IMG/VR virus record: IMGVR_UViG_3300027906_000084
Coordinates: 1-30,760 of that record
Direction: 5' to 3' (one strand)
From: a virus
Length of the DNA: 30,760 nucleotides
Positions within the stretch are counted from its first letter, which is position 1. The number at the start of each line of letters is the position of its first letter. This document shows positions 5,883 through 19,017 of this stretch, piece after piece. A program made the position numbers and the translations under genes. The notes below the pieces were generated by a model. The model saw nothing but the letters and a program-made list of their open reading frames with translations, was not told the origin of the DNA and did not search any database.

Positions 5883-7082
5883 ATGTCAGACGATATTTTT
5901 ATAAAACATGGTCTAGGAAGTTTTCAACAGCCTTATAACGCAAGAACGCCTGCAAACTCCCAAGAACCAAATATTCGTAATACGCAAGAACCTAATATTA
6001 GGAATCAGCAAGAGCCTAATATAAGGAACCAACAAGAACCGAATATAAGAAATTACCAAGTTCCTACTACCTATAATCATAGGTCGCCTTCAACATACGA
6101 CCATAGGTCACCTACTACATATAATCACAGAAGTCCTGCTATTACTCAAGCAACATATCAAGCAAGACAACCAGGAACATATCAACATAGAAGTCCTTCA
6201 ACATATAGGCATCCGTTAATATATCAACACCCTACGACTTATGACCATAGGTCGCCTGCGATTGCAAACGGACAACAACCTAATATAAGGAACACTCAAC
6301 AACCTTTGATTGCAAACGCACAACAACCTACGATTAAGTCTGCTCAACAACCAAACATTAGAGATGGTCAACAACCTACGATTAAGAATGCTCAACAACC
6401 TACAATTAAGAGTGGTCAGGAACCCAATATTAGAAGTTCAAGAGAACCTACTACATATTCAGCTCAAGGTAGAACACCTTCCACATATAACTTTAGGTCG
6501 CCGTTTACATATAACGCTAGAAACCCTTCTACATATAGTGCAACAGGAACAAGAACTGTTCCTGATGCCCAAGTTATTGATAATACATTAAAGGGAAGAG
6601 GATCCGATATGCAACTGGAAGACAGTGCTGCTGCTGAAGCATTTATTGATGTTAAAGTATATTATAATACGCCTGCCAATGGTGGTAGACTTGAAGTTAC
6701 CTGTCATGGTGGCGGAGCGCCCAATAGCACAGGCAACAGTCCTACAACTCCCAATGATAAAGTTTATTGGTTTAATGCCGACCATGATGTGTCTATAGGT
6801 GGTTATACTGTAAAATATACTAAAACAAATGTTAGCGCTGACAATGGAGGCTTTACGCATACAACAATAGGAACTTCTGCAACATCTGTTCCAACAGGTG
6901 GATTTGGCAACGCACTAAGATTGCGATATTTTTGTGAAGCAGAAGCAGATGCAGGTTCAGATGATGAGCAGGATGGTGATTTTGATATAAATTTAATTTT
7001 TGAACACGCAACTTTACCTACTTATACTTATACAGCTAATTGGGATTGTGTTGCTTCGGCATCCTCACAAGGTGGCGAATAG
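5883..7082 (+). CDS. Proline-periodic repeat fibre protein with globular C-terminal domain
   Basis: The product is 399 aa. Residues 15-227 are repeats of the types PNIRN(A/Q)Q(E/Q), P(T/S)TYxHRS and P(T/L)I(K/A)xAQQ. The 27 prolines from position 17 to 227 are all at odd positions, so every spacing is even (6, 8, 10 or 12). Residues 228-399 are non-repetitive: an acidic start (GSDMQLEDSAAAEAFIDVKV), two Cys, several Gly-rich loops and a C-terminal beta-rich segment ending CVASASSQGGE. This suggests a fibrous stalk topped by a globular, possibly receptor-binding, head. Paralogous repeat stalks occur in the products of the genes at 7096, 15089 and 16576. No signal peptide or membrane segment is seen. 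I do not know a characterised homologue; fibre function is inferred from context and architecture. Confidence 0.75.
   Translation: MSDDIFIKHGLGSFQQPYNARTPANSQEPNIRNTQEPNIRNQQEPNIRNQQEPNIRNYQVPTTYNHRSPSTYDHRSPTTYNHRSPAITQATYQARQPGTYQHRSPSTYRHPLIYQHPTTYDHRSPAIANGQQPNIRNTQQPLIANAQQPTIKSAQQPNIRDGQQPTIKNAQQPTIKSGQEPNIRSSREPTTYSAQGRTPSTYNFRSPFTYNARNPSTYSATGTRTVPDAQVIDNTLKGRGSDMQLEDSAAAEAFIDVKVYYNTPANGGRLEVTCHGGGAPNSTGNSPTTPNDKVYWFNADHDVSIGGYTVKYTKTNVSADNGGFTHTTIGTSATSVPTGGFGNALRLRYFCEAEADAGSDDEQDGDFDINLIFEHATLPTYTYTANWDCVASASSQGGE
5925..6563 (+). repeat. Tandem 18/24-bp coding repeats (P-x5 / P-x7 units)
   Basis: The repeat encodes residues 15-227 of the product of the gene at 5883. Units of 24 bp (P-x7) and 18 bp (P-x5) predominate. 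Identical peptides use different codons; for example the Asn-Ile-Arg triplets vary at third positions. The array therefore looks maintained by protein-level selection rather than by very recent slippage. Confidence 0.9.
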
Positions 7083-7095
7083 GAGATGATGTAAA

Positions 7096-7893
7096 ATGGC
7101 ACAACAACCTTATCCATACATTGCACAAGGACAACAACCTGTTATTGCACAGGGTCAAGAACCTAACATTAGAAATGCTCAAAACCCCTATCCTTATATT
7201 GCAAATAAACAGAGTCCGTTTACCTATAATCACAGGTCACCGTTTACTTATCAGCATAGGTCACCGTTTACTTATCAACATAGAAGTCCGTTTACCTATC
7301 AACATAGAGTGCCATATACCTATAATCATAGGTCACCCTTTACATATAATCATAGAGGTCCGACCACTTATAACCACAGAAGTCCGTTTACTTACAATGT
7401 TCAACAACCTAATATAAGGAATGCACAAACGACTGCTAACAAACAGCAACCTAGTAATGCACAAGAACCTAATATAAGAAACAATCAGACACCTTATATT
7501 GCAAGACAACCTCTTGTTGTTCAAGAACCTAACATTAGAGACCAACAAGAACCTAATATTAGGAATCAACAAGAACCTAATATAAGGAATGCACAAACGA
7601 CTGCTACTTATGACCATAGGTCACCTACTACTTACAATCATAGGTCACCATTGACATATCAACATCAGTCTCCTGCAACATATGACCACAGAAGTCCAGC
7701 GATATATCAACATCCAAGTATTAGCACCAGACAAATAAATCAAGTCGCTAAAGTAAAAGGTGTTTTCAATAAAACTGCACCCAATACTGTAGAGAAAGTA
7801 GAAGAAGTATTCGTTAAAAAAGACAACACTGGACCTTCAGGAACAGTAGAGAAGATACATCAAATGGTACCTACTGGACAGTTTAGTAATTAA
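7096..7893 (+). CDS. Proline-periodic repeat fibre protein, short basic/acidic C-terminus
   Basis: The product is 265 aa, preceded by AGGAGA at the end of the upstream gene. Residues 3-207 are almost entirely repeat: PYPYIA(N/Q), PFTYxHRS, PNIRN and PSNAQE units. All 27 prolines in that stretch fall at odd positions. Residues 208-265 are not repetitive and carry two similar KV-type strings (TVEKVEEVFVKK and TVEKIHQMV) spaced about 20 residues apart, which may be a short helical or oligomerisation segment. Unlike its upstream neighbour it has no large globular head. It lies 13 nt downstream of that gene and probably belongs to the same transcript. No enzymatic motif is visible. It is likely a structural or fibre stalk protein. 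Confidence 0.72.
   Translation: MAQQPYPYIAQGQQPVIAQGQEPNIRNAQNPYPYIANKQSPFTYNHRSPFTYQHRSPFTYQHRSPFTYQHRVPYTYNHRSPFTYNHRGPTTYNHRSPFTYNVQQPNIRNAQTTANKQQPSNAQEPNIRNNQTPYIARQPLVVQEPNIRDQQEPNIRNQQEPNIRNAQTTATYDHRSPTTYNHRSPLTYQHQSPATYDHRSPAIYQHPSISTRQINQVAKVKGVFNKTAPNTVEKVEEVFVKKDNTGPSGTVEKIHQMVPTGQFSN
7102..7716 (+). repeat. Tandem 18/24-bp coding repeats, second array
   Basis: The repeat encodes residues 3-207 of the product of the gene at 7096. A run of nine P(F/Y/T)TY(N/Q)HR(S/V/G) octads sits in the first half and PNIRN octads in the second. The octad phase is kept even where a proline is replaced (QTTANKQQ, QTTATYDH). Confidence 0.9.
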
Positions 7894-7897
7894 AATA

Positions 7898-7905
7898 TAT
7901 AAATA
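7898..7905 (+). promoter_or_regulatory. T4-type late promoter octamer TATAAATA (leaderless configuration)
   Basis: This is an exact match to the T4 late promoter octamer, in the 17-nt gap between two genes. It is followed by 5 nt (GTTGT) and then the ATG at 7911. With the T4 spacing (octamer end at about -6) transcription would begin at the A of the start codon. No Shine-Dalgarno sequence is present. Confidence 0.75.
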
Positions 7906-7910
7906 GTTGT

Positions 7911-8243
7911 ATGGCAATTATAGCAAATTTATTCATAGACCAAGGAACAGACTTCGAAATAGTAGTTGATGTTTCAGATGCAACTGGTGAAACTTTAAAT
8001 TTAACTGGATATACATCAGCTGGTCAAATCAGAAAGACATATGGTTCTAGTACCAAAGTAGACTTTACTACTTCACATGGAACACCTGCTGACGGAAAAG
8101 TCACAATGTCTCTTACTGATACTCAAACAGCTGCATTAACTTCGGGTAGGTATGTTTATGATATGAATATAACTAGTTCTGGAGGTAAAATAACCAGAGT
8201 AGTTGAAGGCCAGGCAATTATAACACCAGGAGTCACAAGATGA
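7911..8243 (+). CDS. Small virion structural protein, Ig-like/BppU-N-like fold suspected
   Basis: The product is 110 aa starting MAIIANLFIDQGTDFEI. The sequence runs through NLTGYTSAGQIRK, a TMSLTDTQT segment and RYVYDMNITSSGGKITRVVEGQAII. Small proteins with this pattern (IDQG near the N-terminus, NLTGY..G.IRK, then S.G..tRv.eG) are common in the fibre regions of marine T4-like phages and resemble the N-terminal domain of baseplate upper proteins such as BppU (resemblance from memory). It is predicted to be all-beta. The exact late-promoter octamer lies 5 nt upstream of its ATG and no RBS is visible. The stop overlaps the ATG of the next gene by 4 nt (ATGA), so the two are probably co-translated. 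Confidence 0.75.
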   Translation: MAIIANLFIDQGTDFEIVVDVSDATGETLNLTGYTSAGQIRKTYGSSTKVDFTTSHGTPADGKVTMSLTDTQTAALTSGRYVYDMNITSSGGKITRVVEGQAIITPGVTR

Positions 8244-8479
8244 GTATAAAGGGAGTAGTATCAAGAGTCGCTACTATCGGTGGTGTATTATCTAACACAA
8301 CTAACCTAAGAGCAAAACAAGTATCAGTTGGTAGTGGAGGTTCAGCCGACCTATCTTCTAAGAGTATTCAAGAGCTCTCAGATGTAAATGCATCTGAAAC
8401 AAATGACGGACTTTTGACATATAATGCTACAACAGACAAGTGGGAAACCACAACAGTTTTAGATGGTGGAACTTTCTAG
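8240..8479 (+). CDS. Small fibre-associated protein ending in GGTF
   Basis: The product is 79 aa (MSIKGVVSRVATIGGVLSNTT). The middle is Gly/Ser-rich. The C-terminal half, with SIQELSDVNASETNDGLL followed by a KWETT segment, resembles the sequence found near the ends of marine phage fibre proteins. It ends LDGGTF. The products at 9092 (IDGGTF) and 12927 (INGGTF) end the same way. The start overlaps the stop of the upstream gene (ATGA). It is likely a short virion protein or a fibre tip element; the function is unknown. Confidence 0.65.
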   Translation: MSIKGVVSRVATIGGVLSNTTNLRAKQVSVGSGGSADLSSKSIQELSDVNASETNDGLLTYNATTDKWETTTVLDGGTF

Positions 8480-8538
8480 TTAGGAAGTTGCCAACTAAAT
8501 TCAATTTTATTAGAGCGTGATGAGAGGCGTGTGAATGA

Positions 8539-8925
8539 GTGAAATGGATCTTTACTATATTACTTCTTGTAGCTGCAGCTGGTAGCTGCGAACCTTTACA
8601 AGCAAAACCTTCCGATTGGGACAAAAAGGACCAAAAACTTTGGAGGTCATATCTAGCTCTTTCTGCTCTTGATACCTATCAAACATTCAAAATGATAGAT
8701 TGTCAGAAACAACCTCATTGTCCTCTCATTGAAAAAAATCCATTCTTAGGAGAAAGACCTGGAAAGGGAGAATTAGTTGCTCTTAAAGTCGTGGGTAATC
8801 TAATTATATACCAAATGTTAGAACAATCTCCACCCGATGATAGAACTAAAGCTTTGAGATGGTTAAACGGTGTTCAAGGTTTAGTTGTTACCCATAACGG
8901 TTTTTATTATTACAAAAAGTTCTAG
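8539..8925 (+). CDS. Exported or lipoprotein-like small protein of unknown function
   Basis: The product is 128 aa from GTG 8539, preceded by GAGAGG. An ATG 4 bases upstream is in another frame and stops after a dozen codons, so it is rejected. The N-terminus MKWIFTILLLVAAAGSC is a signal peptide; Cys17 sits in a near-lipobox (AGS-C), with a possible signal peptidase I site at LQA22. The mature part has DTYQTFKMIDC with a second Cys five residues later, then EKNPFLGERPGKGE, a hydrophobic stretch LVALKVVGNLIIYQ (79-92), and a second weaker one (107-119). The EKNPFLG..P pattern recalls a family of small integral membrane proteins seen in phages and bacteria, but I cannot name it with confidence. 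Its place inside a fibre cluster suggests host-envelope function such as lysis or superinfection exclusion (inference). Confidence 0.65.
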   Translation: MKWIFTILLLVAAAGSCEPLQAKPSDWDKKDQKLWRSYLALSALDTYQTFKMIDCQKQPHCPLIEKNPFLGERPGKGELVALKVVGNLIIYQMLEQSPPDDRTKALRWLNGVQGLVVTHNGFYYYKKF

Positions 8926-8943
8926 TTTCGAACATTCTAATCG

Positions 8944-8951
8944 TATAAATA
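8944..8951 (+). promoter_or_regulatory. T4-type late promoter octamer TATAAATA with long leader
   Basis: An exact octamer 140 nt upstream of the fibre gene at 9092. It is followed after CTA by TTACAAAC, which partly matches the GTRTAAAC element seen at other late promoters of this window. The predicted start is near 8957, giving a leader of about 135 nt. Confidence 0.75.
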
Positions 8952-8956
8952 CTATT

Positions 8957-9091
8957 ACAAACATCATTGTGTCAATCAGTGAGACACGAACCTCATAGTG
9001 AGAGGATTGATATATTATAACCTTTCTCGAATAGTGCAGAGAAAAAATTAAATTTAATTTTATAATCATTTATTTTTAGAGGAAATAAAAA
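8957..9091 (+). promoter_or_regulatory. Structured 5' leader of the fibre gene at 9092
   Basis: Three inverted repeats lie between the late promoter and the ATG. The first is a long-range stem, 8970-8977 with 9005-9012 (core TCAATC/GATTGA), enclosing a small hairpin 8979-8983 with 8992-8996. The second is a stem TTTCTC/GAGAAA, 9023-9028 with 9039-9044, loop of 10. The third is a perfect 18-nt palindrome at 9044-9061 rich in A and T, which competes with the second for base 9044. An RBS, AGAGGA at 9078-9083, follows in an unpaired A-rich stretch. No other leader in the window is this long. The folding is by eye only. Confidence 0.5.
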
Positions 9092-10651
9092 ATGGCAACA
9101 GTAATTCAAATCAAACGAAGCACTGGCTCATCCGCCCCAGGTACATCAGATTTAGCTGAAGGCGAATTGGCCTATGTTCAGGATAGGTCGAATTCTGGCG
9201 CTGGCGCAAAACTTTACATCGAATCAGTAGATTCAGATAACTCTACCGCATTAATCCAAGCGATTGGTGGTAAGTATTATACTGATATGCTTGCTGGGTC
9301 GACTGCTACTCCTGCCGACTTTAAAGTTGGTAATAGTGCATCGACTGGTGGTACTTTAAAACTTATGGAAGATACCGATAACGGTTCTAACTATGTAGGT
9401 CTTAAAGCTGCAAACACTCTAGGTAGTAATGTCACATGGACATTACCTAGTGCTGACGGTTCGGCTAACCAAGTTATTGCAACAGATGGTTCAGGAACCC
9501 TATCTTTTGCTTCAACAACTTCGACCATCGCAGGTGCGACTGATACTAATATCACAACTCCCGCTGATGCGTCCTTACTATTTTATGACACAGGCACATC
9601 TAAATGGATAGATAATGTCATGTCTGGTGACGCTACCATGGCAGACACAGGTGCTTTAACAATCGCTGCTGGTGCAGTAGAGAATGCTATGTTAGCAGAC
9701 GATGCTGTAGGTGCTGACGAGTTAGCTGCAAACGCAGTTGTAACCGCTTCTATGGTTAACGATGCAGTCACAGCAGACAAACTTGCTTCAAGCGCAGTAG
9801 TTACCGCATCTATCGTAGATAATGCAGTGACTTTAGACAAAATTGCAGACGCTGTAATTATTCTAGAATCAGAAGGTATTTCATCTAACGATGTAGATAC
9901 TGGATTCCCAACTGCAGCTGCTGTAAAAGATTATGTAGATACTAACATCACTGCTCAAGACCTTGACTTTCAAGGTGATTCAGGTGGTGCTTTATCAATC
10001 GATTTAGATAGTGAAACTTTAACTATCGCTGGTACTGCAAACGAAATCGAAACATCAGGTTCTGGTAATACAATTACAGTTGGACTTCCAAACAATGTAA
10101 CCATTGGTGGAAACTTAACAGTTAGTGGAACAACCACTACAGTTAATTCAACTACTGTATCTATCGCTGACCCTGTATTCGAAATTGGTGCAGACAGTTC
10201 AGATGATAACCTAGACCGTGGTATTAAATTCAAATACAATGACGGTTCAGCTAGAGTCGGATTCTTCGGATATGACGATTCATCTCAAAAGTTTGTTGCA
10301 TTAAGACTTGCAACAGACAGTTCTTCAACATTCTCAGGAACAGCTATGACTGCTGCTTTCGGTGGTATTGAAGGTACAGGTTTAGCACTTTCTGGTTCAA
10401 TAACTTCTATTGATGGTTCAGCTCCTACCGCTGGTCAATTATTAATTGGTCACGCAGGTAATGGCGATTTCGCCGCTGGAACACTAACTGCTGGAGATGG
10501 TATCGACATCACTAACGCTAATGGTAGTATTACCATTGATGGTGAAGATGCGACTACAACTAATAAAGGTATCGCTTCATTTGCAAGTGCAAACTTTACA
10601 GTAAGTTCAGGTGCTGTCACTATCACTGCTATAGACGGCGGAACATTTTAA
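9092..10651 (+). CDS. Tail fibre protein with Mtd-like N-terminal segment
   Basis: The product is 519 aa with a good RBS (AGAGGA). Residues 1-60 (MATVIQIKRSTGSSAPG ... DLAEGELAYVQDRS ... KLYIE) resemble the N-terminal attachment domain seen in Mtd-like and many marine phage fibre proteins. Residues 117-140 carry the module PSADGSANQV..TDGSGTLSFA, shared with the products at 10678 and 12007. Residues 195-252 are repeats of ENAMLADDAVGADEL / NDAVTADKL / DNAVTLDKI type, consistent with a helical or coiled shaft. Residues 336-396 hold the GGNLTVSGTTTTVNSTT ... FGYD module shared with 12007 and 13145. The C-terminus is IDGGTF. It is transcribed from the long-leader late promoter at 8944. Host recognition or fibre shaft function is inferred; no reverse transcriptase is nearby. 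Confidence 0.85.
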   Translation: MATVIQIKRSTGSSAPGTSDLAEGELAYVQDRSNSGAGAKLYIESVDSDNSTALIQAIGGKYYTDMLAGSTATPADFKVGNSASTGGTLKLMEDTDNGSNYVGLKAANTLGSNVTWTLPSADGSANQVIATDGSGTLSFASTTSTIAGATDTNITTPADASLLFYDTGTSKWIDNVMSGDATMADTGALTIAAGAVENAMLADDAVGADELAANAVVTASMVNDAVTADKLASSAVVTASIVDNAVTLDKIADAVIILESEGISSNDVDTGFPTAAAVKDYVDTNITAQDLDFQGDSGGALSIDLDSETLTIAGTANEIETSGSGNTITVGLPNNVTIGGNLTVSGTTTTVNSTTVSIADPVFEIGADSSDDNLDRGIKFKYNDGSARVGFFGYDDSSQKFVALRLATDSSSTFSGTAMTAAFGGIEGTGLALSGSITSIDGSAPTAGQLLIGHAGNGDFAAGTLTAGDGIDITNANGSITIDGEDATTTNKGIASFASANFTVSSGAVTITAIDGGTF

Positions 10652-10677
10652 TTAACGCTGTTCAATAGGAGGAAGAT

Positions 10678-11502
10678 ATGGCAACAGTTATACAGTTTAA
10701 ACGAAGTTCTACTCAGAATGATACTCCAGCTACAAGTGATTTAGCACTTGGTGAGTTGGCTATCAATACCTATCACGGTAGAGTATACACTGAGAAAAAT
10801 GACGGATCAGCTGCAATAGTAGAGGTTGGGTCAGTCCCAGCATCTCTAACTATTAATAACGCTATAACTTTCCCAACCGCAGATGGTTCTGCCAATCAAG
10901 TATTGCAAACTAATGGCTCAGGCACATTATCGTTTGCAACACTAGGTGGTTCTGGTATATCAATTTTCAAATACACATGCACAGGTAATCAGACTGTATT
11001 TACAGGTAATGATGATGATTCAAACTCATTGTCATATACTGTAGGTTCAGAACAAGTATACTTGAATGGTGTTAAGTTAATTGATGGAGGTTCAGATTAT
11101 ACTGCAACCAACGCCACTACCGTCACTTTGGCACAAACAGCGATATCTGGAGATGTATTAGAAGTAGTAGCGATAACAGCTGCGGACTTAGTCCAAGGCT
11201 ATTACACCGCTTCAGCTTTAACAACAACTAATGCAAACCAGGTATTGAGTTCCAATGCAGTTGCGAATAAGGCAATCAAGTATGTGTTGAGTGCAACACA
11301 TGCTACTGCCGGCACCCACGCTGCTGAAGTATTGTTAATTAATAACGGATCGGCCGCATTTTTCGTTCAATACGGAGATGTATTTTCAACGGCATCATTG
11401 TTTACGCTGACTGCTGATGTTAATTCAGGAAACATGAGATTACTCGTGACTCCTGCTAACACCAACACAACGATAGACACTTTTCAAATCAGACATTCAT
11501 AA
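10678..11502 (+). CDS. Modular tail fibre protein with shared C-terminal domain
   Basis: The product is 274 aa with a strong RBS (AGGAGGA, 10667-10673). The N-terminus MATVIQFKRSSTQND..ATSDLALGELAIN is a paralogue of the N-terminus of the preceding gene. Residues 64-87 hold the PTADGSANQVLQTNGSGTLSFA module (shown here only in part by its key residues). Residues 96-170 form a beta module with VYLNGVKLIDGGSDYT and GDVLEVVAI. The C-terminal domain, 197-274 (KAIKYVLSATHA ... EVLLINNGSAAFFVQYG ... GNMRLLVTPANTNTTID), is a divergent copy of the domain that ends the next two gene products. It is likely one of several alternative or cooperating adhesins. Confidence 0.82.
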   Translation: MATVIQFKRSSTQNDTPATSDLALGELAINTYHGRVYTEKNDGSAAIVEVGSVPASLTINNAITFPTADGSANQVLQTNGSGTLSFATLGGSGISIFKYTCTGNQTVFTGNDDDSNSLSYTVGSEQVYLNGVKLIDGGSDYTATNATTVTLAQTAISGDVLEVVAITAADLVQGYYTASALTTTNANQVLSSNAVANKAIKYVLSATHATAGTHAAEVLLINNGSAAFFVQYGDVFSTASLFTLTADVNSGNMRLLVTPANTNTTIDTFQIRHS

Positions 11503-11515
11503 GGGGGAATAAAAA

Positions 11516-11926
11516 ATGGCTATAACAAATAGTTTTAAACTTGCAGAGTTAGTTAGACATCTTTCTTATGACTCAACAACTGATAGTATTTTAACAACTA
11601 AATCTATGACAAGTAAGGATAAGGCGAGAGGGGCAGCTACTAAAACAGCTACAACTCAGTTCAACTTAGACACATTTGCTCATGCGAGTTTTAGGGCTGC
11701 AAAATACATCGTTGCGATGTCCAGAGGAAGTGACTTTCACTCAACGGAAATAATGTTAGTCCACGATGGTTCGGCTGTGACAATAACACAATACGGCACA
11801 TTAAAGGATGCAAGCATAGCGACATTCGATGCAGACATATCTGGCGATAATGTCAGACTAAGATGCACACCAGCATCAAGTTCGTCAAGTGTAATTAAAT
11901 TCGAGAGAATTTTAGTAGACGCTTAA
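11516..11926 (+). CDS. Small fibre/adhesin protein with shared C-terminal domain
   Basis: The product is 136 aa with an AAGGGGGA RBS. Residues 1-57 are a short N-terminus (MAITNSFKLAELVRHLSYD). Residues 58-136 (SFRAAKYIVAMSRG ... TEIMLVHDGSAVTITQYG ... DNVRLRCTPASSSSSVI) are the same domain as residues 188-270 of the product at 12007. Proteins with this (R-A/S-AKY ... HDG ... QYG ... VRL) domain recur in marine T4-like fibre clusters (from memory). A strong terminator follows 21 nt after the stop, so this is the last gene of the transcript that starts at 8944. Confidence 0.78.
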   Translation: MAITNSFKLAELVRHLSYDSTTDSILTTKSMTSKDKARGAATKTATTQFNLDTFAHASFRAAKYIVAMSRGSDFHSTEIMLVHDGSAVTITQYGTLKDASIATFDADISGDNVRLRCTPASSSSSVIKFERILVDA

Positions 11927-11947
11927 AATAATCAAAACATTATGTTT

Positions 11948-11975
11948 AAAGGGGACTTCGAGTCCCCTTTTTTTT
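11948..11975 (+). terminator. Rho-independent terminator
   Basis: The perfect stem GGGGACT/AGTCCCC has a 3-nt TCG loop and is followed by eight T. Three flanking A-T pairs extend the stem to 10 bp. It lies between 11516-11926 and the late promoter at 11994. Confidence 0.95.
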
Positions 11976-11993
11976 GGTTTAGTTCCCAAATAA

Positions 11994-12001
11994 CATAAAT
12001 A
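11994..12001 (+). promoter_or_regulatory. Late promoter CATAAATA (one mismatch, leaderless configuration)
   Basis: One mismatch to TATAAATA. It follows the terminator and lies exactly 5 nt (ACACC) before ATG 12007. No Shine-Dalgarno sequence is present. Confidence 0.65.
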
Positions 12002-12006
12002 ACACC

Positions 12007-12819
12007 ATGGCAACTAAAGCAAAATTTTACGCAGATTTAGGACTACAATCTGAATTGGCATCACAAATAGATGGAGATTTGACTGTTGCAGGTAATTTAA
12101 CAGTCACAGGAACTACAGTCACAGTTAATTCAACAACAACATCAGTTGGTGATTCAATGATGGAATTAGCGAATCAAAACACTAGTGCCGACTTAATTGA
12201 TATTGGTTTCTACGGAAACTATAACGATGGACTATCAGATGGTGGTGCATCAGAATACACAGGTTTGTTCAGAGATGCATCTAATTCTACATGGACATTA
12301 TTTGATGGTCTAGAATCAGAACCTTCCACTACAGTTAATACTAGTGGAACAGGATACGCTCTTGCAGATTTAAAAGTGGGAGATTTAACTTCTACTACTT
12401 TGACAGCTGCAAGTTTAACATATCCAACATCAGATGGTTCTGCCAATCAAGTTTTACAAACAAATGGTAGTGGAACACTATCTTTTGCGAATCGTGATTT
12501 AGTATCTGGAACATTAACCACAACATCTACAAGTGCAACAACTCTAGATAGTATTGCAGTTGCAACTTATAGAAGTGCAAAATATTCTGTATCAATATCT
12601 GACGCTACAGGAAGCGACTATCAAATAACAGAAGTTCATGTTGTTCATGATGGCACAAGTGCATCTATAACTCAATTTGGTACAGTTCTACAAGGAACTT
12701 CTTCTGAGTTGGGAACATTTACTGTAGACATTAATAGTGGTAGTTTAAGATTAAGAGTTGCAAGTGCATCTTCTAATTCCACTGTATATAAATTTAAAAG
12801 AATAGACCATTCGGTTTAA
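12007..12819 (+). CDS. Modular tail fibre protein with shared C-terminal domain
   Basis: The product is 270 aa. The N-terminus is MATKAKFYADLGLQSELASQ. Residues 24-98 are the GDLTVAGNLTVTGTT ... NSTTTSVGDSMMELANQ ... FYGNYNDG module also found at 9092 and 13145. Residues 139-161 hold the TSDGSANQVLQTNGSGTLSF module. Residues 188-270 form the C-terminal AKY/HDG/QFG/LRLRV domain shared with the two genes upstream. It is transcribed from its own late promoter, which lies 5 nt from the ATG with no RBS. A weak hairpin and a second late promoter follow. It is likely a short fibre or adhesin. Confidence 0.82.
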   Translation: MATKAKFYADLGLQSELASQIDGDLTVAGNLTVTGTTVTVNSTTTSVGDSMMELANQNTSADLIDIGFYGNYNDGLSDGGASEYTGLFRDASNSTWTLFDGLESEPSTTVNTSGTGYALADLKVGDLTSTTLTAASLTYPTSDGSANQVLQTNGSGTLSFANRDLVSGTLTTTSTSATTLDSIAVATYRSAKYSVSISDATGSDYQITEVHVVHDGTSASITQFGTVLQGTSSELGTFTVDINSGSLRLRVASASSNSTVYKFKRIDHSV

Positions 12820-12853
12820 AAACCTAAACTATTTTGCAAAGAAGTTATAAAAG

Positions 12854-12875
12854 ACTCTCTAAAGAGAGTGTTTAT
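12854..12875 (+). terminator. Weak terminator-like hairpin
   Basis: Stem ACTCTC/GAGAGT at 12854-12859 and 12864-12869 with a 4-nt TAAA loop, followed by the T-rich stretch GTTTAT. The T-tract is interrupted, so termination is likely to be partial at best. Confidence 0.4.
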
Positions 12876-12877
12876 CT

Positions 12878-12885
12878 TATAAATA
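12878..12885 (+). promoter_or_regulatory. T4-type late promoter octamer TATAAATA
   Basis: Exact octamer, 41 nt upstream of ATG 12927. After ATG it continues GTGTTATA, a weak version of the downstream GTRTAAAC element. A 6-bp inverted repeat, TGGTGT/ACACCA (12887-12892 with 12907-12912), spans the predicted start site; the RBS AAGGGA follows. Confidence 0.75.
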
Positions 12886-12926
12886 ATGGTGTTATAAGAC
12901 AAACTTACACCAAAAGGGACACATAA

Positions 12927-13145
12927 ATGGCGACAACAACAACATTTGTAATTGAATATGGGTTATCAGTAGGTTCAACGGAAGTAATAACATCCGCAGG
13001 AAAGATAGTTGCAAGTGCATTGTCAACTATAGATTCAGACGATGTTTCAGAAGGTTCAACAAACCTTTACTACACTTCTGGTAGATTTAATAGTGCATTT
13101 GATACTCGATTGGGATCAGCAACTATTAACGGAGGTACCTTCTAA
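12927..13145 (+). CDS. Small fibre protein, duplicate of the N-terminus of the next gene
   Basis: The product is 72 aa. Residues 7-33 (FVIEYGLSVGSTEVITSAGK) align with residues 6-31 of the next product (FIIKNGLTIGSTEAIDSSGD). Then comes SEGSTNLYYTSGRFNSAFDTRL, a fibre repeat also found as SEGVNKYFTDERV in the product at 4280 and as TEGSSNLYYTNARA in the product at 13145. It ends INGGTF. The stop and the next ATG overlap as TAATG. It is either a separate small virion protein or a fibre cut down to its two ends. Confidence 0.65.
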   Translation: MATTTTFVIEYGLSVGSTEVITSAGKIVASALSTIDSDDVSEGSTNLYYTSGRFNSAFDTRLGSATINGGTF

Positions 13146-15061
13146 TGACAGCTAAAAATTTCATAATCAAAAACGGTCTGACTATAGGTTCAACAGAAGC
13201 CATAGATAGTTCAGGAGATTTAACCGCAGCTTCATTTGGAACAGCTGCAAACGAGGCGATTGACGATAGAGTCAACGCTCTTTTAACCGCAGGGACAGGC
13301 GTATCATTATCATATGATGACGCTGCTGGGACCCTAACAATAAATGGTCAAGTGGGTGATGTCACAGGAGTCACAGCAGGAGACGGACTTTCTGGTGGTG
13401 GCAACAGTGGTGCAGTCACAGTTGCACTAGACCTAAATGAATTAACAGGCGCAGTAGTCGCTGTTGGTGCAGATAGTATTCCATTCATCGATGCAACTGA
13501 TAACTCAACTAAGAAAGAGAGTATCGCAGACTTTGTATCAGGAATTGCTGGGACAGGTCTTACTGCAAGTTCAGGACAATTAAGTATATCAGAAACAGGA
13601 GATATATCAAGTGTTGTCGCAGGAACTGGTTTAACAGGTGGTGGAACATCAGGAGATGTCACTGTTAATGTTATAGGTGGTGATGGTATCACTGCAAACG
13701 CAAACGATGTGGCATTATCATCATCAGTCGCAGGTGATGGTTTATCATTCTCAAGTGGTGTTCTCGCAGTAGGTGTAGATGACTCTTCAATCGAATTAAA
13801 TTCAGATGCAGTTAGAGTAAAAGCAACTGGTATCACAAACGCCATGCTTGCAGGCTCAATTGCAAACGCAAAACTAGTAAACTCTGCTATCACAATTGAT
13901 GGTTCTTCTACTGCATTGGGTGGTTCAATAACTACTACCAATACTGTAGATATGGGTGATGGTTTTAAAGTCGAAGATGGTGATGGAACAGAAGTCACAA
14001 TAACAGAAAACAAACAAATTAAATTTGTAGAAGGTGGTGGCGTAGACATCAACTTTACAGATGTAGATAGTGGTGCAGACGGAGATGAATTCGATTTGAC
14101 ATTCACTATTCCTGCAAATGGTGTCACAAATGCCATGCTTGCAGGTTCAATTGCAAATGACAAACTCGCAGGTTCAATTGCAAACAGTAAACTTGCAAAC
14201 TCAAGTATAACAGTTGGAGATGGTTCTAACACAACTGCAATCTCATTAGGTAATACAGTAACCTTTGCCGCTGGTGAGGGTATGGATGTTGCAGAGAGTT
14301 CAGGAACAGTCACATACACAAGTGAACTTGCAACAGAAACAAACGCTGGTGTCGCAACATTTGATGGTACAGACTTTACTGTATCTTCTGGTGATGTGAC
14401 AATGAACGCAGAAAGAATTCAAGATATCGTTGGTGCAATGGTAACATCAAATACTGAGAGTGCAATTACAGTTGCATATCAAGATGGTGATGGAACTTTA
14501 GACTTTACAGTATCAAATACAGACTCAATAACAGAAGGTTCATCTAACTTATACTACACTAACGCAAGAGCACAGGCCGCAATAACTGCTGGCACAGGTG
14601 TTGCAGTGAGTAGTGGTGCAGTAAGTATTGGCCAGGCAGTTGCAACTTCAAGTAATGTTCAGTTTGCAAACTTAACACTTTCTGGAAACTTAACAGTTAA
14701 TGGTGCAACTTCAACAGTAAGTTCTACTAACACAACACTTACAGATAACTTGATAGAACTTAATAACGGTGCTGGTTCAAACGCAAATGACTCAGGTATT
14801 GTTATTGAAAGGGGTTCTACAGGTGATAATGCATTTATGGGTTGGGATGAATCAGCAGATAGTTTCGTATTAGGAACAACAACAGCTACTGGATCATCAA
14901 CAGGAAATCTAACTATAACTCCTGTTGCAACATCAACTGGTGCATTAACCATCACTAACGCTTCAAACAGTGGTGGCACGGCAAGAAACATATATCAATC
15001 AACCTCTGCACCTGGAGGAGGTGACGGAGCAGTTGGAGATTTATGGATTCTTTACTCTTAA
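13145..15061 (+). CDS. Long modular tail fibre protein
   Basis: The product is 638 aa and starts in the TAATG overlap with the preceding gene. The N-terminus is MTAKNFIIKNGLTIGSTEA. Long Gly/Ala/Thr/Val beta-rich stretches follow, with internal repeats: GDGLSGGG / GTGLTGGG-type turns, and two copies of TNAMLAGSIAN(A/D)KL, which extend to a third as AGSIANSKL. Near the C-terminus lie EGSSNLYYTNARAQAAITAG and then the GNLTVNGATSTVSSTNTTL ... GWDES module shared with 9092 and 12007. It ends APGGGDGAVGDLWILYS. This architecture (repeat shaft plus shared modules) is typical of marine T4-like fibres. The long antisense ORF inside it is a shadow of this biased composition. Confidence 0.85.
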   Translation: MTAKNFIIKNGLTIGSTEAIDSSGDLTAASFGTAANEAIDDRVNALLTAGTGVSLSYDDAAGTLTINGQVGDVTGVTAGDGLSGGGNSGAVTVALDLNELTGAVVAVGADSIPFIDATDNSTKKESIADFVSGIAGTGLTASSGQLSISETGDISSVVAGTGLTGGGTSGDVTVNVIGGDGITANANDVALSSSVAGDGLSFSSGVLAVGVDDSSIELNSDAVRVKATGITNAMLAGSIANAKLVNSAITIDGSSTALGGSITTTNTVDMGDGFKVEDGDGTEVTITENKQIKFVEGGGVDINFTDVDSGADGDEFDLTFTIPANGVTNAMLAGSIANDKLAGSIANSKLANSSITVGDGSNTTAISLGNTVTFAAGEGMDVAESSGTVTYTSELATETNAGVATFDGTDFTVSSGDVTMNAERIQDIVGAMVTSNTESAITVAYQDGDGTLDFTVSNTDSITEGSSNLYYTNARAQAAITAGTGVAVSSGAVSIGQAVATSSNVQFANLTLSGNLTVNGATSTVSSTNTTLTDNLIELNNGAGSNANDSGIVIERGSTGDNAFMGWDESADSFVLGTTTATGSSTGNLTITPVATSTGALTITNASNSGGTARNIYQSTSAPGGGDGAVGDLWILYS

Positions 15062-15067
15062 TAAATA
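15060..15067 (+). promoter_or_regulatory. Late promoter AATAAATA (one mismatch)
   Basis: One mismatch to TATAAATA. It overlaps the stop of the preceding fibre gene and is followed after GTA by GTTTAAGG. The predicted start is near 15073, with ATG at 15089 and a modest RBS AAGGA between. Confidence 0.6.
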
Positions 15068-15088
15068 GTAGTTTAAGGACTTTATAAT

Positions 15089-16576
15089 ATGGCAACAGGC
15101 TCGCAGAAGGTAAAAACTCCAACAGGTTGGAACGCAACGCAAGGTGCATGGGTAAAGACTGCCTCAGGAACATGGAAAGATGTAGACCAAATCTACATCA
15201 AGACTCCTAGTGGTTGGAATAACGCATCAGGACAAGAGAGTGTTCAACAACCTTATCCCTATATTGCTAATGCTCAAGAACCTAATATAAGAAACGCACA
15301 AACACCTTATCCCTATATTGCAAACGCACAAGAACCTAATATAAGAAACGCACAAGCGCCTTATCCTTATATCGCAAACGCACAAGAACCTAATATTAGA
15401 AACCAACAACAACCTGCAATTTATAGGCATCCTGCAAACGCACAAGAACCTAACATTAGAAACGCTCAAGAACCTAACATTAGGGACCAACAAGAACCCA
15501 ACATTAGAAACGCACAAACAACAGTCACTTATGACCATAGAAGTCCTTCAACATATAGAGACCCAAGGACATATCAACATCCGTCTACATATGACCACAG
15601 AAGTCCTTTAACATATGACCATAGAAGTCCTTCATCTTACGACCATAGGTCGCCGACTACTTATGACCATAGGTCGCCGTTTACATATAGGAATCCATTT
15701 ACTTACAACCATAGGTCGCCCTATACATATAATCATAGGTCGCCCTTTACATACGACCATAGGTCGCCGTTTACATATAGGAATCCGTTTACTTACAACC
15801 ATAGGTCACCGTTTACTTACAACCATAGGTCACCTTTTACATATCAACATAGAGTTCCGTTTACCTATCAGTCGCCATTTATTGCATCTGCTAGACAACC
15901 GAACAACGCAAGACAACCTTTCACCTATCAGTCGCCATTCATTGCAGCTGCTAGACAACCGAACAACGCAAGACAACCGAATAACCATAGACAACCAGGT
16001 AACGCTAGACAACCTGGTACTGCAAGAAGTCCAGTGACATACAGTTATCGTAATCCAATTGGTGGAGGCGGTGGTGGTGGTTGCTTCGCTGCTGGTTCAT
16101 TAGTATGGCTTGCAGATGGAAGTCAGTCACCTATTGAAAATGTTGTAATGGGACAAATGATAATGACATGGAACGAATCTACTAAGTTAATAGAACCTAA
16201 ACCATGTTCAATCATAATGGAACCAAGAATGTGTTCTGTATATGATGTTATATTATCAGATGGTAGAATTATGCAAACAACAGATAGTCACCCGCTTATG
16301 TTAAATGGTCAAGAATGGGGTGCTATTGATGTTGATAAATGTGTGAGAGAACATGACTGGATGGAAGGAGTTAATTCACACGAAATTAAAATTGGGGATT
16401 CATTATTCTCTATGACTGACGCTATCATGTTTGATAGACAAGACGAAAGTGGTTTAGAAATAATGGATATAAACGAGAACGCAGATATGACTGTATATAA
16501 TTTAAGTGGTGTTGAAGATAATCACACATACTTTGTTAATGGCATGTTAGTGCATAACTTCCACGAGAAACTATAA
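15089..16576 (+). CDS. Proline-periodic repeat fibre protein with C-terminal Hint (intein-like) domain
   Basis: The product is 495 aa. Residues 1-48 hold a short Trp-rich duplication (KTPTGWN ... WVKTASGTW ... KTPSGWN). Residues 53-323 are P-x5/P-x7 repeats whose 39 prolines, 55 to 323, are all at odd positions. A G7 hinge at 325-331 leads to Cys332 and a Hint domain of 159 residues (332-490). The domain has a block A start CFAAGSLVWLADGS, a block B motif TTDSH (Thr398, His401), and a C-terminal block VYNLSGVEDNHTYFVNG followed by MLVHN (His489-Asn490). The residue after Asn490 is Phe, not Cys/Ser/Thr, and only FHEKL follows. It therefore resembles bacterial intein-like (BIL) domains rather than a splicing intein. 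No homing endonuclease domain fits in its length. Probable role: fibre protein that self-cleaves or ligates at Cys332. The stop overlaps the next ATG. Confidence 0.85.
   Translation: MATGSQKVKTPTGWNATQGAWVKTASGTWKDVDQIYIKTPSGWNNASGQESVQQPYPYIANAQEPNIRNAQTPYPYIANAQEPNIRNAQAPYPYIANAQEPNIRNQQQPAIYRHPANAQEPNIRNAQEPNIRDQQEPNIRNAQTTVTYDHRSPSTYRDPRTYQHPSTYDHRSPLTYDHRSPSSYDHRSPTTYDHRSPFTYRNPFTYNHRSPYTYNHRSPFTYDHRSPFTYRNPFTYNHRSPFTYNHRSPFTYQHRVPFTYQSPFIASARQPNNARQPFTYQSPFIAAARQPNNARQPNNHRQPGNARQPGTARSPVTYSYRNPIGGGGGGGCFAAGSLVWLADGSQSPIENVVMGQMIMTWNESTKLIEPKPCSIIMEPRMCSVYDVILSDGRIMQTTDSHPLMLNGQEWGAIDVDKCVREHDWMEGVNSHEIKIGDSLFSMTDAIMFDRQDESGLEIMDINENADMTVYNLSGVEDNHTYFVNGMLVHNFHEKL
15245..16057 (+). repeat. 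Tandem 18/24-bp coding repeats, third and longest array
   Basis: The repeat encodes residues 53-323 of the product of the gene at 15089. Three PYPYIANAQE/PNIRNAQ decad-octad pairs come first, then PNIRN octads, then a long run of P(F/S/T)TY(D/N)HRS, ending in six-residue P(N/G)(N/T)(A/H)R(Q/S) units before the G7 hinge. Confidence 0.9.
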
Positions 16577-17451
16577 TGGTAGGACAACAGCCAGTCATTG
16601 GAAACACGCAACAACCTGGGAATACGCAGACGCCGTATACCACCCAGACGCCGTTTACTTCAAGAACGCCTTTCACTTATCAAAACCCTTTCACTTATCA
16701 GGCAAGGGAACCTAATAATGCAAGGACGCCGTTTACATATCAAAACCCTTTCACTTATCAGGCAAGGGAACCTAATAACGCAAGACAACCGAACATTAGA
16801 AGTGCTCAACAACCGAACATTAGAAGTGCTCAAGAACCTAATATAAGAAACGCACAAAGTCCTTCTAATGCACAACAACCTACAATTAAGTCTGCTCAAC
16901 AACCAAACATTAGGAATATACAAGAACCTAATATTAGAGATGCACAAAGTCCTTCTAACGGACAACAACCTACGATTAAGAATCAACAGGAACCTAATAT
17001 AAGGAACAATCAAGAACCTAATATAAGAAACCAGCAAGAACCTAATATAAGGAATGCACAAACGACTTCTAACTATCAGCATCCTGTAAATGCACAAGAA
17101 CCTAATATAAGAAATCAACAGCAACCTTCAACATATGACCATAGGTCGCCGACTACTTATGACCACAGAAGTCCGTTTACTTATAATCACAGGTCGCCTT
17201 CTACTTACAGGCATCCTGCAAGTTCTCAAACAACAGTCACATATGACCACAGAAGTCCTTCTACATACGCAAGACAAGGACAACAACCGTCAACATATGA
17301 CCACAGAAGTCCTTCAACATACGCAAGACAAGGACAACAACCATCTACTTACGACCATAGGTCGCCATCTACATATGCTAGACAAGGGCGAACACCAGTT
17401 ATCCGTTGGGATGGAACTGGCGCTTGGCCTGGAACACCTATTACTTCGTAG
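16576..17451 (+). CDS. Proline-periodic repeat protein downstream of the Hint gene
   Basis: The product is 291 aa, with ATG overlapping the stop of the Hint-domain gene (TAATG). Residues 4-274 are repeat; the 35 prolines from 6 to 274 are all at even positions, so all spacings are even. Units include PFTYQN, PFTYQARE, PNNART, PNIR(S/N)AQ, PTIKSAQQ and PSTYDHRS. Three copies of PSTYDHRSPSTYARQG(Q/R) occur near the end. The final segment (VIRWDGTGAWPGTPITS) is non-repetitive, with two Trp. There is no globular head. Translational coupling suggests it is made in fixed ratio with the Hint protein, possibly as its partner (inference). Confidence 0.75.
   Translation: MVGQQPVIGNTQQPGNTQTPYTTQTPFTSRTPFTYQNPFTYQAREPNNARTPFTYQNPFTYQAREPNNARQPNIRSAQQPNIRSAQEPNIRNAQSPSNAQQPTIKSAQQPNIRNIQEPNIRDAQSPSNGQQPTIKNQQEPNIRNNQEPNIRNQQEPNIRNAQTTSNYQHPVNAQEPNIRNQQQPSTYDHRSPTTYDHRSPFTYNHRSPSTYRHPASSQTTVTYDHRSPSTYARQGQQPSTYDHRSPSTYARQGQQPSTYDHRSPSTYARQGRTPVIRWDGTGAWPGTPITS
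16585..17397 (+). repeat. Tandem 18/24-bp coding repeats, fourth array
   Basis: The repeat encodes residues 4-274 of the product of the gene at 16576. It contains near-identical longer duplications: a 20-residue unit PFTYQN/PFTYQARE/PNNART occurs twice in tandem, and an 18-residue unit PSTYDHRS/PSTYARQGQQ is repeated near the end. These suggest some more recent duplication within this array. Confidence 0.88.
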
Positions 17452-17484: not shown

Positions 17485-19017
17485 ATGAGTATCAAGTCTA
17501 AAACTTTAAGTGACACTATAGCCATTCTAGAAAAAGAAGATTGGAAAGACCCTTCTTTCCATATGCATATGGGTGGTTTCAATATCGATGAACCCTATGA
17601 AGACGAAGAGGCATACAAGTCTTTAAAGTATATAATCAAAGAAAATAATCTAAAACTTAAAAGGGTTACATGGGGAGATGTAGTTAAGTTAATTAAAGAA
17701 GGTAAGTTTTCTGGTTGGAACGCATTACAATCTCAGTCTTTTGGTTATCAATATTTCTTACCACATGGTTATACATATAAACCAAAGGAACCACATCCTG
17801 GCAAAATCGGCATGGACTTCAAAAATTCAAATGATGAATATGAAAATATAGGAAAACATGTTGATGATTTTGATGATCCAACTTTAGAAGATAACATAAA
17901 TTCTGTATACTATCATGCCGCTAAAGCACATTGGTTAACTAACAGCATAAGAAAGGAAGGTTTATGGAATCCAATTCAAGGCAAAGTTGTCAAAGCTCAC
18001 CAAGGATATAGAATAGAAATTCATCCAGGTTCTGTTCGTTCTCCTGTATTTGAATGTCTAGATGATTGGGATATGGAAATGTGGATATGGGACGAATATG
18101 ATGCTATACCTGTTCCCGAAATACAAATAGAAGAAATTATAGAGTGGGCTAAAGTAAAGATACTTGCGAATACAGATAAGTATCATAAGAACATTGCCTT
18201 TGCATTTGTTCATGGTTATATAGAAATACTAACTGATTTATTACAGTTGACTTTCCGAAAAGAAGTATATGAGTTTAATGAAAAGGTTAGCAAGTTAGCT
18301 AAAGGTAAACACTTAAATGTATATATTGGTTATGATTCAAGACATCAGAATCTTGCAGAATTAAATAAGAAGTGTATTGAACATGCATGTAGATATGGTG
18401 CAGGTAGTGGAGATGTTCATAGTCTAATGAACAAATGGAAACCAGAGATTAACTTTCTTGACATATCTAAGATTCCAGAATATACTAGAGACTACGCAAA
18501 TCAATCCACTGAATTTACATACAGTAGATTCTTAATACCTTACTTAGAAAATTACGAAGGATTTAGTATATTCTTAGACGATGATATACTATTTACTAAG
18601 AGTCTATGGCCAATGTTCTACTTTTTGGATCCAGACGATGCAGTCGCATGTATACAATATGACTTTGACAAGTATCCAGAAACCAAATTTGATGGCGAAA
18701 AGAATGTTTCATATCCGAAGAAACTATGGTCTTCGCTGATGATATTTAACAATGGTCATGAAGACTGTAAGAAACTAACACCCGAAATTGTTAATAATGC
18801 AAGTGGACAATACTTACATCAGTTCGAATGGACTGATAAGATATCTGAGATACCAGAACATTATGTATTTACAGAAGGACATGATACAAGAGAAACTAAT
18901 TGGAGACCTAGTGCGATACATTACACAAGAGGCGGACCATGGATTGAAGGTATGGATATCACCGAGATAGACGAACTAAATACTTATAGAAACCTATTGA
19001 ATAGATTTGAAGAATAA
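17485..19017 (+). CDS. Glycosyltransferase (GT-A type) with ParB-like N-terminal region
   Basis: The product is 510 aa. Residues 276-490 look like a GT-A nucleotide-sugar transferase of GT8-like type: HLNVYIGYDSR (strand 1), FTYSRFLIPYLENYEG, then FLDDDILF (Asp365-367, a DxD-type metal/nucleotide motif) and IHYTRGGPW (478-486), similar to the HxxGxxKPW end motif of GT8. Residues 145-190 (LTNSIRKEGLWNPIQG ... GYRIEIHPGSVRSPVFE) have the spacing of a ParB/sulfiredoxin-like core, but this is weak and by eye. Residues 1-140 are unassigned. The probable reaction is sugar transfer to a phage protein or host polymer. It directly follows the repeat fibre genes and precedes two 2OG oxygenases, which makes virion protein glycosylation a reasonable guess. 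Confidence 0.75.
   Translation: MSIKSKTLSDTIAILEKEDWKDPSFHMHMGGFNIDEPYEDEEAYKSLKYIIKENNLKLKRVTWGDVVKLIKEGKFSGWNALQSQSFGYQYFLPHGYTYKPKEPHPGKIGMDFKNSNDEYENIGKHVDDFDDPTLEDNINSVYYHAAKAHWLTNSIRKEGLWNPIQGKVVKAHQGYRIEIHPGSVRSPVFECLDDWDMEMWIWDEYDAIPVPEIQIEEIIEWAKVKILANTDKYHKNIAFAFVHGYIEILTDLLQLTFRKEVYEFNEKVSKLAKGKHLNVYIGYDSRHQNLAELNKKCIEHACRYGAGSGDVHSLMNKWKPEINFLDISKIPEYTRDYANQSTEFTYSRFLIPYLENYEGFSIFLDDDILFTKSLWPMFYFLDPDDAVACIQYDFDKYPETKFDGEKNVSYPKKLWSSLMIFNNGHEDCKKLTPEIVNNASGQYLHQFEWTDKISEIPEHYVFTEGHDTRETNWRPSAIHYTRGGPWIEGMDITEIDELNTYRNLLNRFEE

What the first reader, a model, noticed from the sequence alone, without database searches (positions are those of the whole stretch)
5925..17397. Four repeat proteins whose prolines obey strict even spacing
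The repeat stalks of the products at 5883, 7096, 15089 and 16576 mix units of 6, 8, 10, 12, 14 and 16 residues with very different side chains (PNIRNAQE, PFTYNHRS, PNNARQ, PYPYIANAQE). Counting by eye, all 124 proline-to-proline spacings are even (27, 27, 39 and 35 prolines), so every proline in a stalk sits on the same parity. Insertions and deletions have apparently been accepted only in multiples of two residues (6 bp). That is the signature of a continuous two-residue alternation, as in an extended beta strand or beta-spiral fibre with two faces: for P-F-T-Y-x-H-R-S, P/T/x/R on one face and F/Y/H/S on the other. I know of no named fold with this rule.
Basis: partly seen in the sequence, partly recalled or inferred. 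Interest (0 to 1): 0.85.

Follow-up and report, generated by a model that had tools for sequence, protein, structure and literature searches.

The report
Two-chain mirror-matched phage fibre
Neighbouring genes of a marine virus of bacteria encode pairs of long repeat proteins whose repeat patterns are mirror images of each other, which suggests that the two chains zip together head-to-tail, unit by unit, into one thin fibre, something like the two strands of DNA but made of protein.

Summary
It is a shadow of something larger. The genes form two adjacent pairs (A 5883 + B 7096; C 15089 + D 16576). Reading C N-to-C and D C-to-N gives the same series of proline spacings; A/B behave alike. In 49 non-redundant IMG/VR pairs every pair beats 500 unit shuffles, and 3831 of 3831 spacings inside matched stalks are even. 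Units face complementary units: TY-octads face IR/IA-octads, TY-hexads face NA-hexads, YPYIA-decads face TYARQG-decads. The strongest residue covariation crosses chains, on one face, in the same antiparallel register for all three unit lengths. Between related genomes, indels in one chain recur at the mirrored site of the other. A natural A-B fusion has odd 7- and 9-residue units, yet mirrored, so mirroring is the rule and evenness follows from it. Best reading: a heterodimeric antiparallel beta-ribbon, prolines on non-hydrogen-bonded edge positions, forming a phage fibre. AlphaFold was uninformative (pLDDT 28 and 42). No structure, Pfam family, named phage or paper found here describes it.

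The parts
5883..7082 (+). Gene A: chain 1 of pair A/B (399 aa)
   Evidence: antiparallel proline match to B, K=230, 23 P-P matches
5931..6563 (+). A stalk, P17-P227, 27 prolines, all spacings even
6564..7079 (+). A C-terminal domain, no Pfam match; differs in length and sequence between relatives; at the end opposite to B's C-terminal domain
7096..7893 (+). Gene B: chain 2 of pair A/B (265 aa)
7108..7716 (+). B stalk, P5-P207, 27 prolines
7729..7890 (+). B C-terminal domain (VAKVKGVF...VEKIHQ), weakly similar to the C N-terminal domain (hhalign probability 73.5, P 3e-5)
15089..16576 (+). Gene C: chain 1 of pair C/D (495 aa)
   Evidence: K=329, 34 P-P matches with D
15089..15250 (+). C N-terminal domain (TPxGWN...GAWVKTASGTWKDVDQIYIKT)
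   Evidence: chain-2 register is fixed relative to it
15251..16057 (+). C stalk, P55-P323, 39 prolines, 268 residues first to last proline
16082..16558 (+). Hint (intein-like) domain at the C end of C, after a Gly run, starting at Cys332
   Evidence: Pfam Intein_splicing E 1.9e-6, below its curated cut-off
16576..17451 (+). Gene D: chain 2 of pair C/D (291 aa); ATG shares one base with the stop of C
16591..17397 (+). D stalk, P6-P274, 35 prolines, 268 residues, equal to C
17398..17448 (+). D C-terminal motif (P)VIRWDGTGAWPGTPITS, conserved; its leading proline faces C P55

Best explanation
Each adjacent gene pair encodes the two complementary chains of one hetero-oligomeric fibre. In the stalk, chain 1 (A or C) and chain 2 (B or D) run antiparallel and pair residue by residue over about 200-550 residues as a beta ladder. 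A unit of one chain faces a unit of equal length and opposite type in the other: PFTYNHRS faces PNIRNAQE or PYIANAQQ, PFTYQN faces PNNARQ, PYPYIANAQE faces PSTYARQGQT. Residue i of chain 1 faces residue K-2-i of chain 2, where K is the sum of facing proline positions. The alternating pairs of an antiparallel ladder put one parity on hydrogen-bonded sites and the other on sites whose NH points away from the partner. Proline has no NH and is kept on the second parity, which is why every spacing is even; it would also stop further strands from adding to the edge. Register is written in the side chains (F facing A/G, L and T facing Q, D facing R), so only the right partner fits along its full length. 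One end of the fibre carries the conserved domains (C N-terminus with D RWDG motif; A N-terminus with B C-terminal domain), the other a variable or Hint domain. SHOWN: pairing relation, antiparallel sense, register, unit code, mirrored indels, two faces. INFERRED: beta-ladder geometry, role of proline, two-strand cross-section, place on the virion (gene context between a large tail-fibre-region protein and neck/terminase genes), and a length of roughly 70-90 nm if fully extended.
For: (1) Mirror match: for C/D the best i+j register matches 0.86 of prolines against 0.50 for mismatched genomes, own partner ranked first in 32 of 34; A/B 0.77 against 0.47; parallel reading 0.54/0.52. All 49 pairs exceed all 500 unit-order shuffles, median z 9.2 and 8.2. 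(2) Stalk lengths match over a wide range (190/190, 310/310, 554/554, window C/D 268/268); in Hint-bearing C/D pairs r = 0.999. (3) Register is fixed: K - length(D) is 36-38 in 32 of 34 C/D pairs. (4) Unit code in 1571 blocks: TY8:IR8 564, TY8:IA8 175, TY6:NA6 300, YPYIA10:TYARQG10 143; NA6:NA6 9, IR8:IR8 none listed. (5) Covariation on unique unit pairs: top cross-chain couplings at position sum L-2 (8-mers 1:5, 1.01 bits; 6-mers 1:3 and 3:1; 10-mers 1:7) and the sum-L diagonal, in 6- and 8-mers well above within-chain couplings (0.14 bits in TY:IR 8-mers); F faces A/G, L faces Q, D faces R in 9 of 9. (6) Mirrored indels: 34 of 72 chain-1 indels have an equal-size chain-2 indel at the mirrored site against 4 in an unmirrored control; L131/L136 match +8, +2, +12. 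(7) Natural A-B fusion with mirrored odd units; L173 has one more 7-mer than L034 in both halves. (8) Strict two-face residue segregation.
Against: Both AlphaFold2 jobs (in-frame C-D read-through of L134, 553 aa; its 159-residue junction hairpin) gave no confident structure (mean pLDDT 28 and 42), so the beta ladder is not independently supported. In 10:10 blocks one within-chain coupling (4-6, 0.70 bits) is as strong as the cross-chain ones. Some pairs deviate: L140 matches only 29 of 64 prolines, L015 has a one-residue break, and L147/L148/L053/L119 show uncompensated indels of 18-88 residues, possibly collapsed repeats in assembly. TY6:TY6 occurs 38 times. No virion proteomics; all homologues are uncultured. 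Oligomeric state beyond the pair is unknown.
Confidence: 0.87

Rival explanations
1. Homotrimeric parallel fibre (beta-spiral or gp5-like triple beta-helix) for each protein separately; even spacing just keeps inside/outside alternation.
For: Standard design of phage fibres; sub-threshold Pfam Gp5_trimer_C hit in A 129-185 (E 3.5e-4, 21.1 bits against cut-off 30.9); parity rule and two faces fit.
Against: Gives no reason for mirror-matched unit series, the unit-pair code, cross-chain covariation or mirrored indels between neighbouring genes. Ten relatives gave no gp5 hit. A 6/8/10 mixture would change prism girth from level to level.
Confidence: 0.04
2. The mirror arises at DNA or RNA level: D is an inverted copy of C, or the two parts of the mRNA base-pair.
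For: An inverted duplication would reverse unit order.
Against: blastn of C vs D and A vs B finds 27 and 20 plus-strand and no minus-strand matches. Facing units are both read in sense with proline facing proline, and CCN cannot pair with CCN. Covariation is at amino-acid level (F:A, D:R).
Confidence: 0.01
3. Higher-order version, compatible with the best explanation: several C/D ribbons associate (sandwich, coiled bundle or closed barrel), the hetero-ribbon being the building block.
For: All aromatics lie on one face, which may pack against another ribbon; known phage fibres are multi-chain; a bare two-stranded ribbon of 268 residues would be very thin.
Against: No covariation evidence of a third partner was sought beyond A-D cross-matches, which are at background.
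Confidence: 0.45
4. Intrinsically disordered linkers whose repeat patterns match by shared ancestry of the neighbouring genes.
For: AlphaFold2 gave only low confidence; low-complexity composition; C and D share unit sequences on the plus strand.
Against: Shared ancestry gives parallel, not mirrored, similarity; disorder imposes no parity, no register and no 1-bit cross-chain coupling.
Confidence: 0.02

Closest known systems
T4 gp5 C-terminal triple-stranded beta-helix (Pfam PF22178)
   Same: Phage structural protein with octad repeats and a two-residue in/out alternation (general knowledge); weak sub-threshold profile hit in A
   Different: gp5 is a parallel homotrimer with VxGxxxxx octads of fixed length (general knowledge); here unit lengths vary 2-16+ and the partner is a different, antiparallel chain
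Beta-spiral fibre shafts (adenovirus fibre, T4 short tail fibre)
   Same: Thin, extended, repeat-coded fibre stalk
   Different: Parallel homotrimers with one repeat type (general knowledge); no hetero-chain code
Collagen-like phage fibres
   Same: Proline-rich repeats; here too, 2OG-Fe(II) oxygenase and glycosyltransferase-8-like genes lie next to the fibre genes
   Different: No Gly-X-Y triplets; proline period is 6/8/10, not 3
Coiled-coil heterodimers and DNA duplexes (analogy only)
   Same: Two complementary chains whose register is written in facing residues; antiparallel as in DNA
   Different: Prolines every 6-10 residues exclude helices; units of three lengths act as the alphabet
Hint / bacterial intein-like domains
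   Same: C-terminal domain of C begins at Cys after a Gly run, has TxxH-like TDSH and ends in VHN (sequence)
   Different: A terminal add-on absent from about half of the C relatives

Membership tests
T4 gp5 C-terminal trimerisation domain (PF22178) | Profile score above the curated cut-off | tested here: not met
   21.1 bits against 30.9 in A only; none of ten relatives listed
T4 gp5 C-terminal trimerisation domain (PF22178) | Octads of constant length with V and G at fixed places | tested here: not met
   Units of 6, 8 and 10 intermixed, PNIRNAQE / PFTYNHRS types
Homotrimeric parallel fibre shafts (beta-spiral) | Chain pairs with copies of itself, in parallel | tested here: inconclusive
   Nothing in the sequences points to it: antiparallel self-match at background 0.48-0.55, neighbour match 0.92/0.77, parallel reading of partners at background; the oligomer itself is not testable here
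Collagen-like proteins | Gly-X-Y triplets | tested here: not met
   Gly absent from one face (0) and rare on the other (15) in the window stalks
Antiparallel two-chain beta ladder (proposed) | Facing positions sum to a constant; strongest couplings at i+j constant and on the i,j+2 diagonal, same face | tested here: met
Antiparallel two-chain beta ladder (proposed) | Strand geometry in a model or map | tested here: inconclusive
   AlphaFold2 pLDDT 28 and 42
Hint / intein-like domain (C residues 332-490) | Profile match above curated cut-off | tested here: inconclusive
   Intein_splicing E 1.9e-6, 28.2 of 35.8 bits; relative L160 passes for Hom_end_hint, 37.4 against 32.1
Hint / intein-like domain (C residues 332-490) | Self-cleavage | not testable with these tools
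   Needs protein chemistry
Phage tail fibre | Present in virion tail appendage | not testable with these tools
   Only gene context: next to tail-fibre-like and neck genes

The most novel reading that the evidence does not exclude
A natural protein duplex: two gene products annealing antiparallel along hundreds of residues through a small alphabet of complementary units of 6, 8 and 10 residues, with compensatory evolution of whole units, comparable in logic to base pairing; each virus makes at least two orthogonal duplexes (A/B and C/D).
Probability: 0.8. Interest if true: 0.96.

Novelty: categorically new. Interest (0 to 1): 0.93.

Why it matters
If right, this is a way of building a fibre that none of the known phage-fibre designs covers: length and register are set by complementary sequence in two chains instead of by three copies of one chain. 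It offers a readable code (unit types, facing residues) that can be tested with short synthetic peptides, and a source of programmable, orthogonal protein zippers. It also poses an evolutionary puzzle: how matching insertions arise at mirrored places in two neighbouring genes.

Tried and rejected
AlphaFold2 on an in-frame C-D read-through (L134, eight-row alignment) and on its junction hairpin: no confident structure, so no fold search was run. Named phages: tblastn hits in Mycobacterium phage ThetaBob, Gordonia phage Spooky and Vibrio phage F23s1 lie antisense to the annotated feature and were taken as chance; the remaining hits (mostly Vibrio phages) fall in the Hint part only. Genome-contig scan: no relative. 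PDB: only a weak Hint hit and chance hits. Parallel pairing, self-pairing and cross-pairing of A/B with C/D: background. DNA inversion: no minus-strand similarity. Simple mutual information versus register shift is confounded by unit phase and was replaced by the within-block test. Eight paper searches found no description of such a fibre. Direct BLAST of the C N-terminus against the B C-terminus was not significant; profile comparison weak.
Full report
CONTEXT. The window is a whole IMG/VR fragment of 30,760 bases from a T4-like marine myovirus. Its terminase is closest to Phage C48C1 (56%, Kyanoviridae) and to Synechococcus phages (about 45%). The four repeat genes lie between a large structural protein (DUF4815, phrog_358), tail-fibre-like genes, and the neck/terminase/sheath genes. 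I call them A (5883), B (7096), C (15089) and D (16576). A and B are neighbours; C and D overlap by one base.

OBSERVATION. The stalk prolines number 27, 27, 39 and 35 and all 124 spacings are even. Viral loci with relatives were collected (later added relatives of one fused protein). Over the regions first taken as homologous the count was 5043 even and 289 odd, the odd ones mostly from terminal domains. Inside stalks as later defined by the match between partners, 49 non-redundant pairs give 3831 even and 0 odd. Each parity has its own residues: P, I, T, N, Q, R on one face; Y, F, H, A, E on the other (P 3929:0, Y 3:2568, F 9:1225, H 5:780).

THE PAIRING. Adjacent repeat genes have stalks of matching length (268/268 in the window C/D pair; 190/190 to 554/554 elsewhere). 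Prolines coincide when chain 2 is read backwards. For the window C/D pair 34 prolines coincide at i+j = 329; for A/B 23 at i+j = 230. Written out, C forward ends ...6,8,8,8,6,8,8,8,6,8,6,6,8,6,6,6,6,8 and D backward ends the same way; where one chain has a 16 the other has 8+8, where one has 10 the other has 2+8. Own partners match far better than partners from other genomes and than parallel readings, and A, B, C and D match only A-B and C-D. Shuffling the order of chain-2 units never reached the observed match in 500 trials for any of the 49 pairs. The pairs were thinned by shared 12-mers but remain related by descent, so they are not 49 independent events.

THE CODE. Cutting both chains at coincident prolines gives 1571 blocks. 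A TY-type unit nearly always faces a non-TY unit of the same length. Within TY8:IR8 blocks, TY position 1 and IR position 5 share about 1 bit on unique unit pairs, several times any coupling inside the TY chain. The joint table is chemically sensible: F with A or G, L with Q, T with Q, D only with R. The same register (position sum = unit length minus 2) and the same diagonal (sum = unit length) are top-ranked for units of 6, 8 and 10 residues, and for 8- and 6-mers whichever chain carries the TY unit. Same-face direct and one-sided diagonal couplings at constant i+j are what an antiparallel beta ladder would give (established knowledge of beta-sheet geometry; inference).

EVOLUTION. Between genomes with at least 80% identity in both chains, 34 of 72 chain-1 indels have an equal-size chain-2 indel at the mirrored site, against 4 when positions are not mirrored; 141 of 146 indels are even. 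Examples: L131/L136 (+8, +2, +12), L017/L049 (-26, +14, -16), L124/L128 (-2, +4, +8). The L034 family fuses an A-like N-terminus and a B-like C-terminus in one 526-541-residue protein. It has runs of 7- and 9-residue units, odd yet mirrored between its halves (mirror z 5.3-7.4 against shuffles), and L173 has one more 7-mer than L034 in both halves. So the deepest constraint is equality with the facing strand; evenness is the usual consequence.

ENDS. In 32 of 34 C/D pairs the register is fixed relative to the C terminus of D (K minus length 36-38): the first stalk proline of C faces the proline before the RWDG motif of D. The C N-terminal domain and the B C-terminal domain would sit at the same end and are weakly similar by profile. 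The other end carries the variable domain of A or, in about half of the C proteins, a Hint domain.

MECHANISM. In an antiparallel ladder, alternate residue pairs are hydrogen-bonded to the partner or point their NH outward. Proline is acceptable only at the latter, which yields the parity rule in a two-stranded ribbon and would also discourage a third strand. This step, the cross-section and the place on the virion are inferred. Both AlphaFold2 jobs were uninformative.

NOVELTY. Searches of PDB sequences, Pfam, PHROGs, about 50,000 phage records and the open-access papers gave no match to the stalks and no description of such a fibre. Subscription papers were not searchable.

Noticed in passing
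window 17485-19017, 19590-20324, 21089-21853: Glycosyltransferase-8-like gene (sub-threshold) and two 2OG-Fe(II) oxygenase genes (PF13640 8e-10, PF13759 8e-19) follow the fibre genes; relatives of these genes lie in the held flanks of 51-53 of 73 loci with a repeat pair. They may hydroxylate and glycosylate the proline-rich fibre, as in collagen; untested.
   Followed up: partly
window 16082-16558: Hint/intein-like domain at the C end of C with Cys after a Gly run and VHN near the end; possible self-cleavage or C-terminal ligation of the fibre.
   Followed up: partly
window 8240-8479, 9092-10651, 12927-13145: Three fibre-region proteins of different length end in GGTF, perhaps a shared docking tail.
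   Followed up: no
window 3-4070: A run of about 60 residues of almost only P, A and V (PAPVPVPAPVPAPAP...) interrupts the DUF4815 protein.
   Followed up: no
window 7911-8243: Small protein with a sub-threshold match to LtfC-like beta-sandwich (PF23926, E 0.0017) directly after B.
   Followed up: no
L034 5302-6879; L173; L174: Natural A-B fusion with 7-, 9- and 11-residue units mirrored between its two halves: a single-chain version of the fibre.
   Followed up: yes
L147, L148, L149: Near-identical genomes differ by 44 or 88 residues in one stalk only; either repeat collapse in assembly or true uncompensated variants.
   Followed up: no
L140: The pair with the poorest mirror match; many 4-residue PFTY/PFIQ units and long IGTTDATGST-type units, perhaps a variant code.
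   Followed up: no
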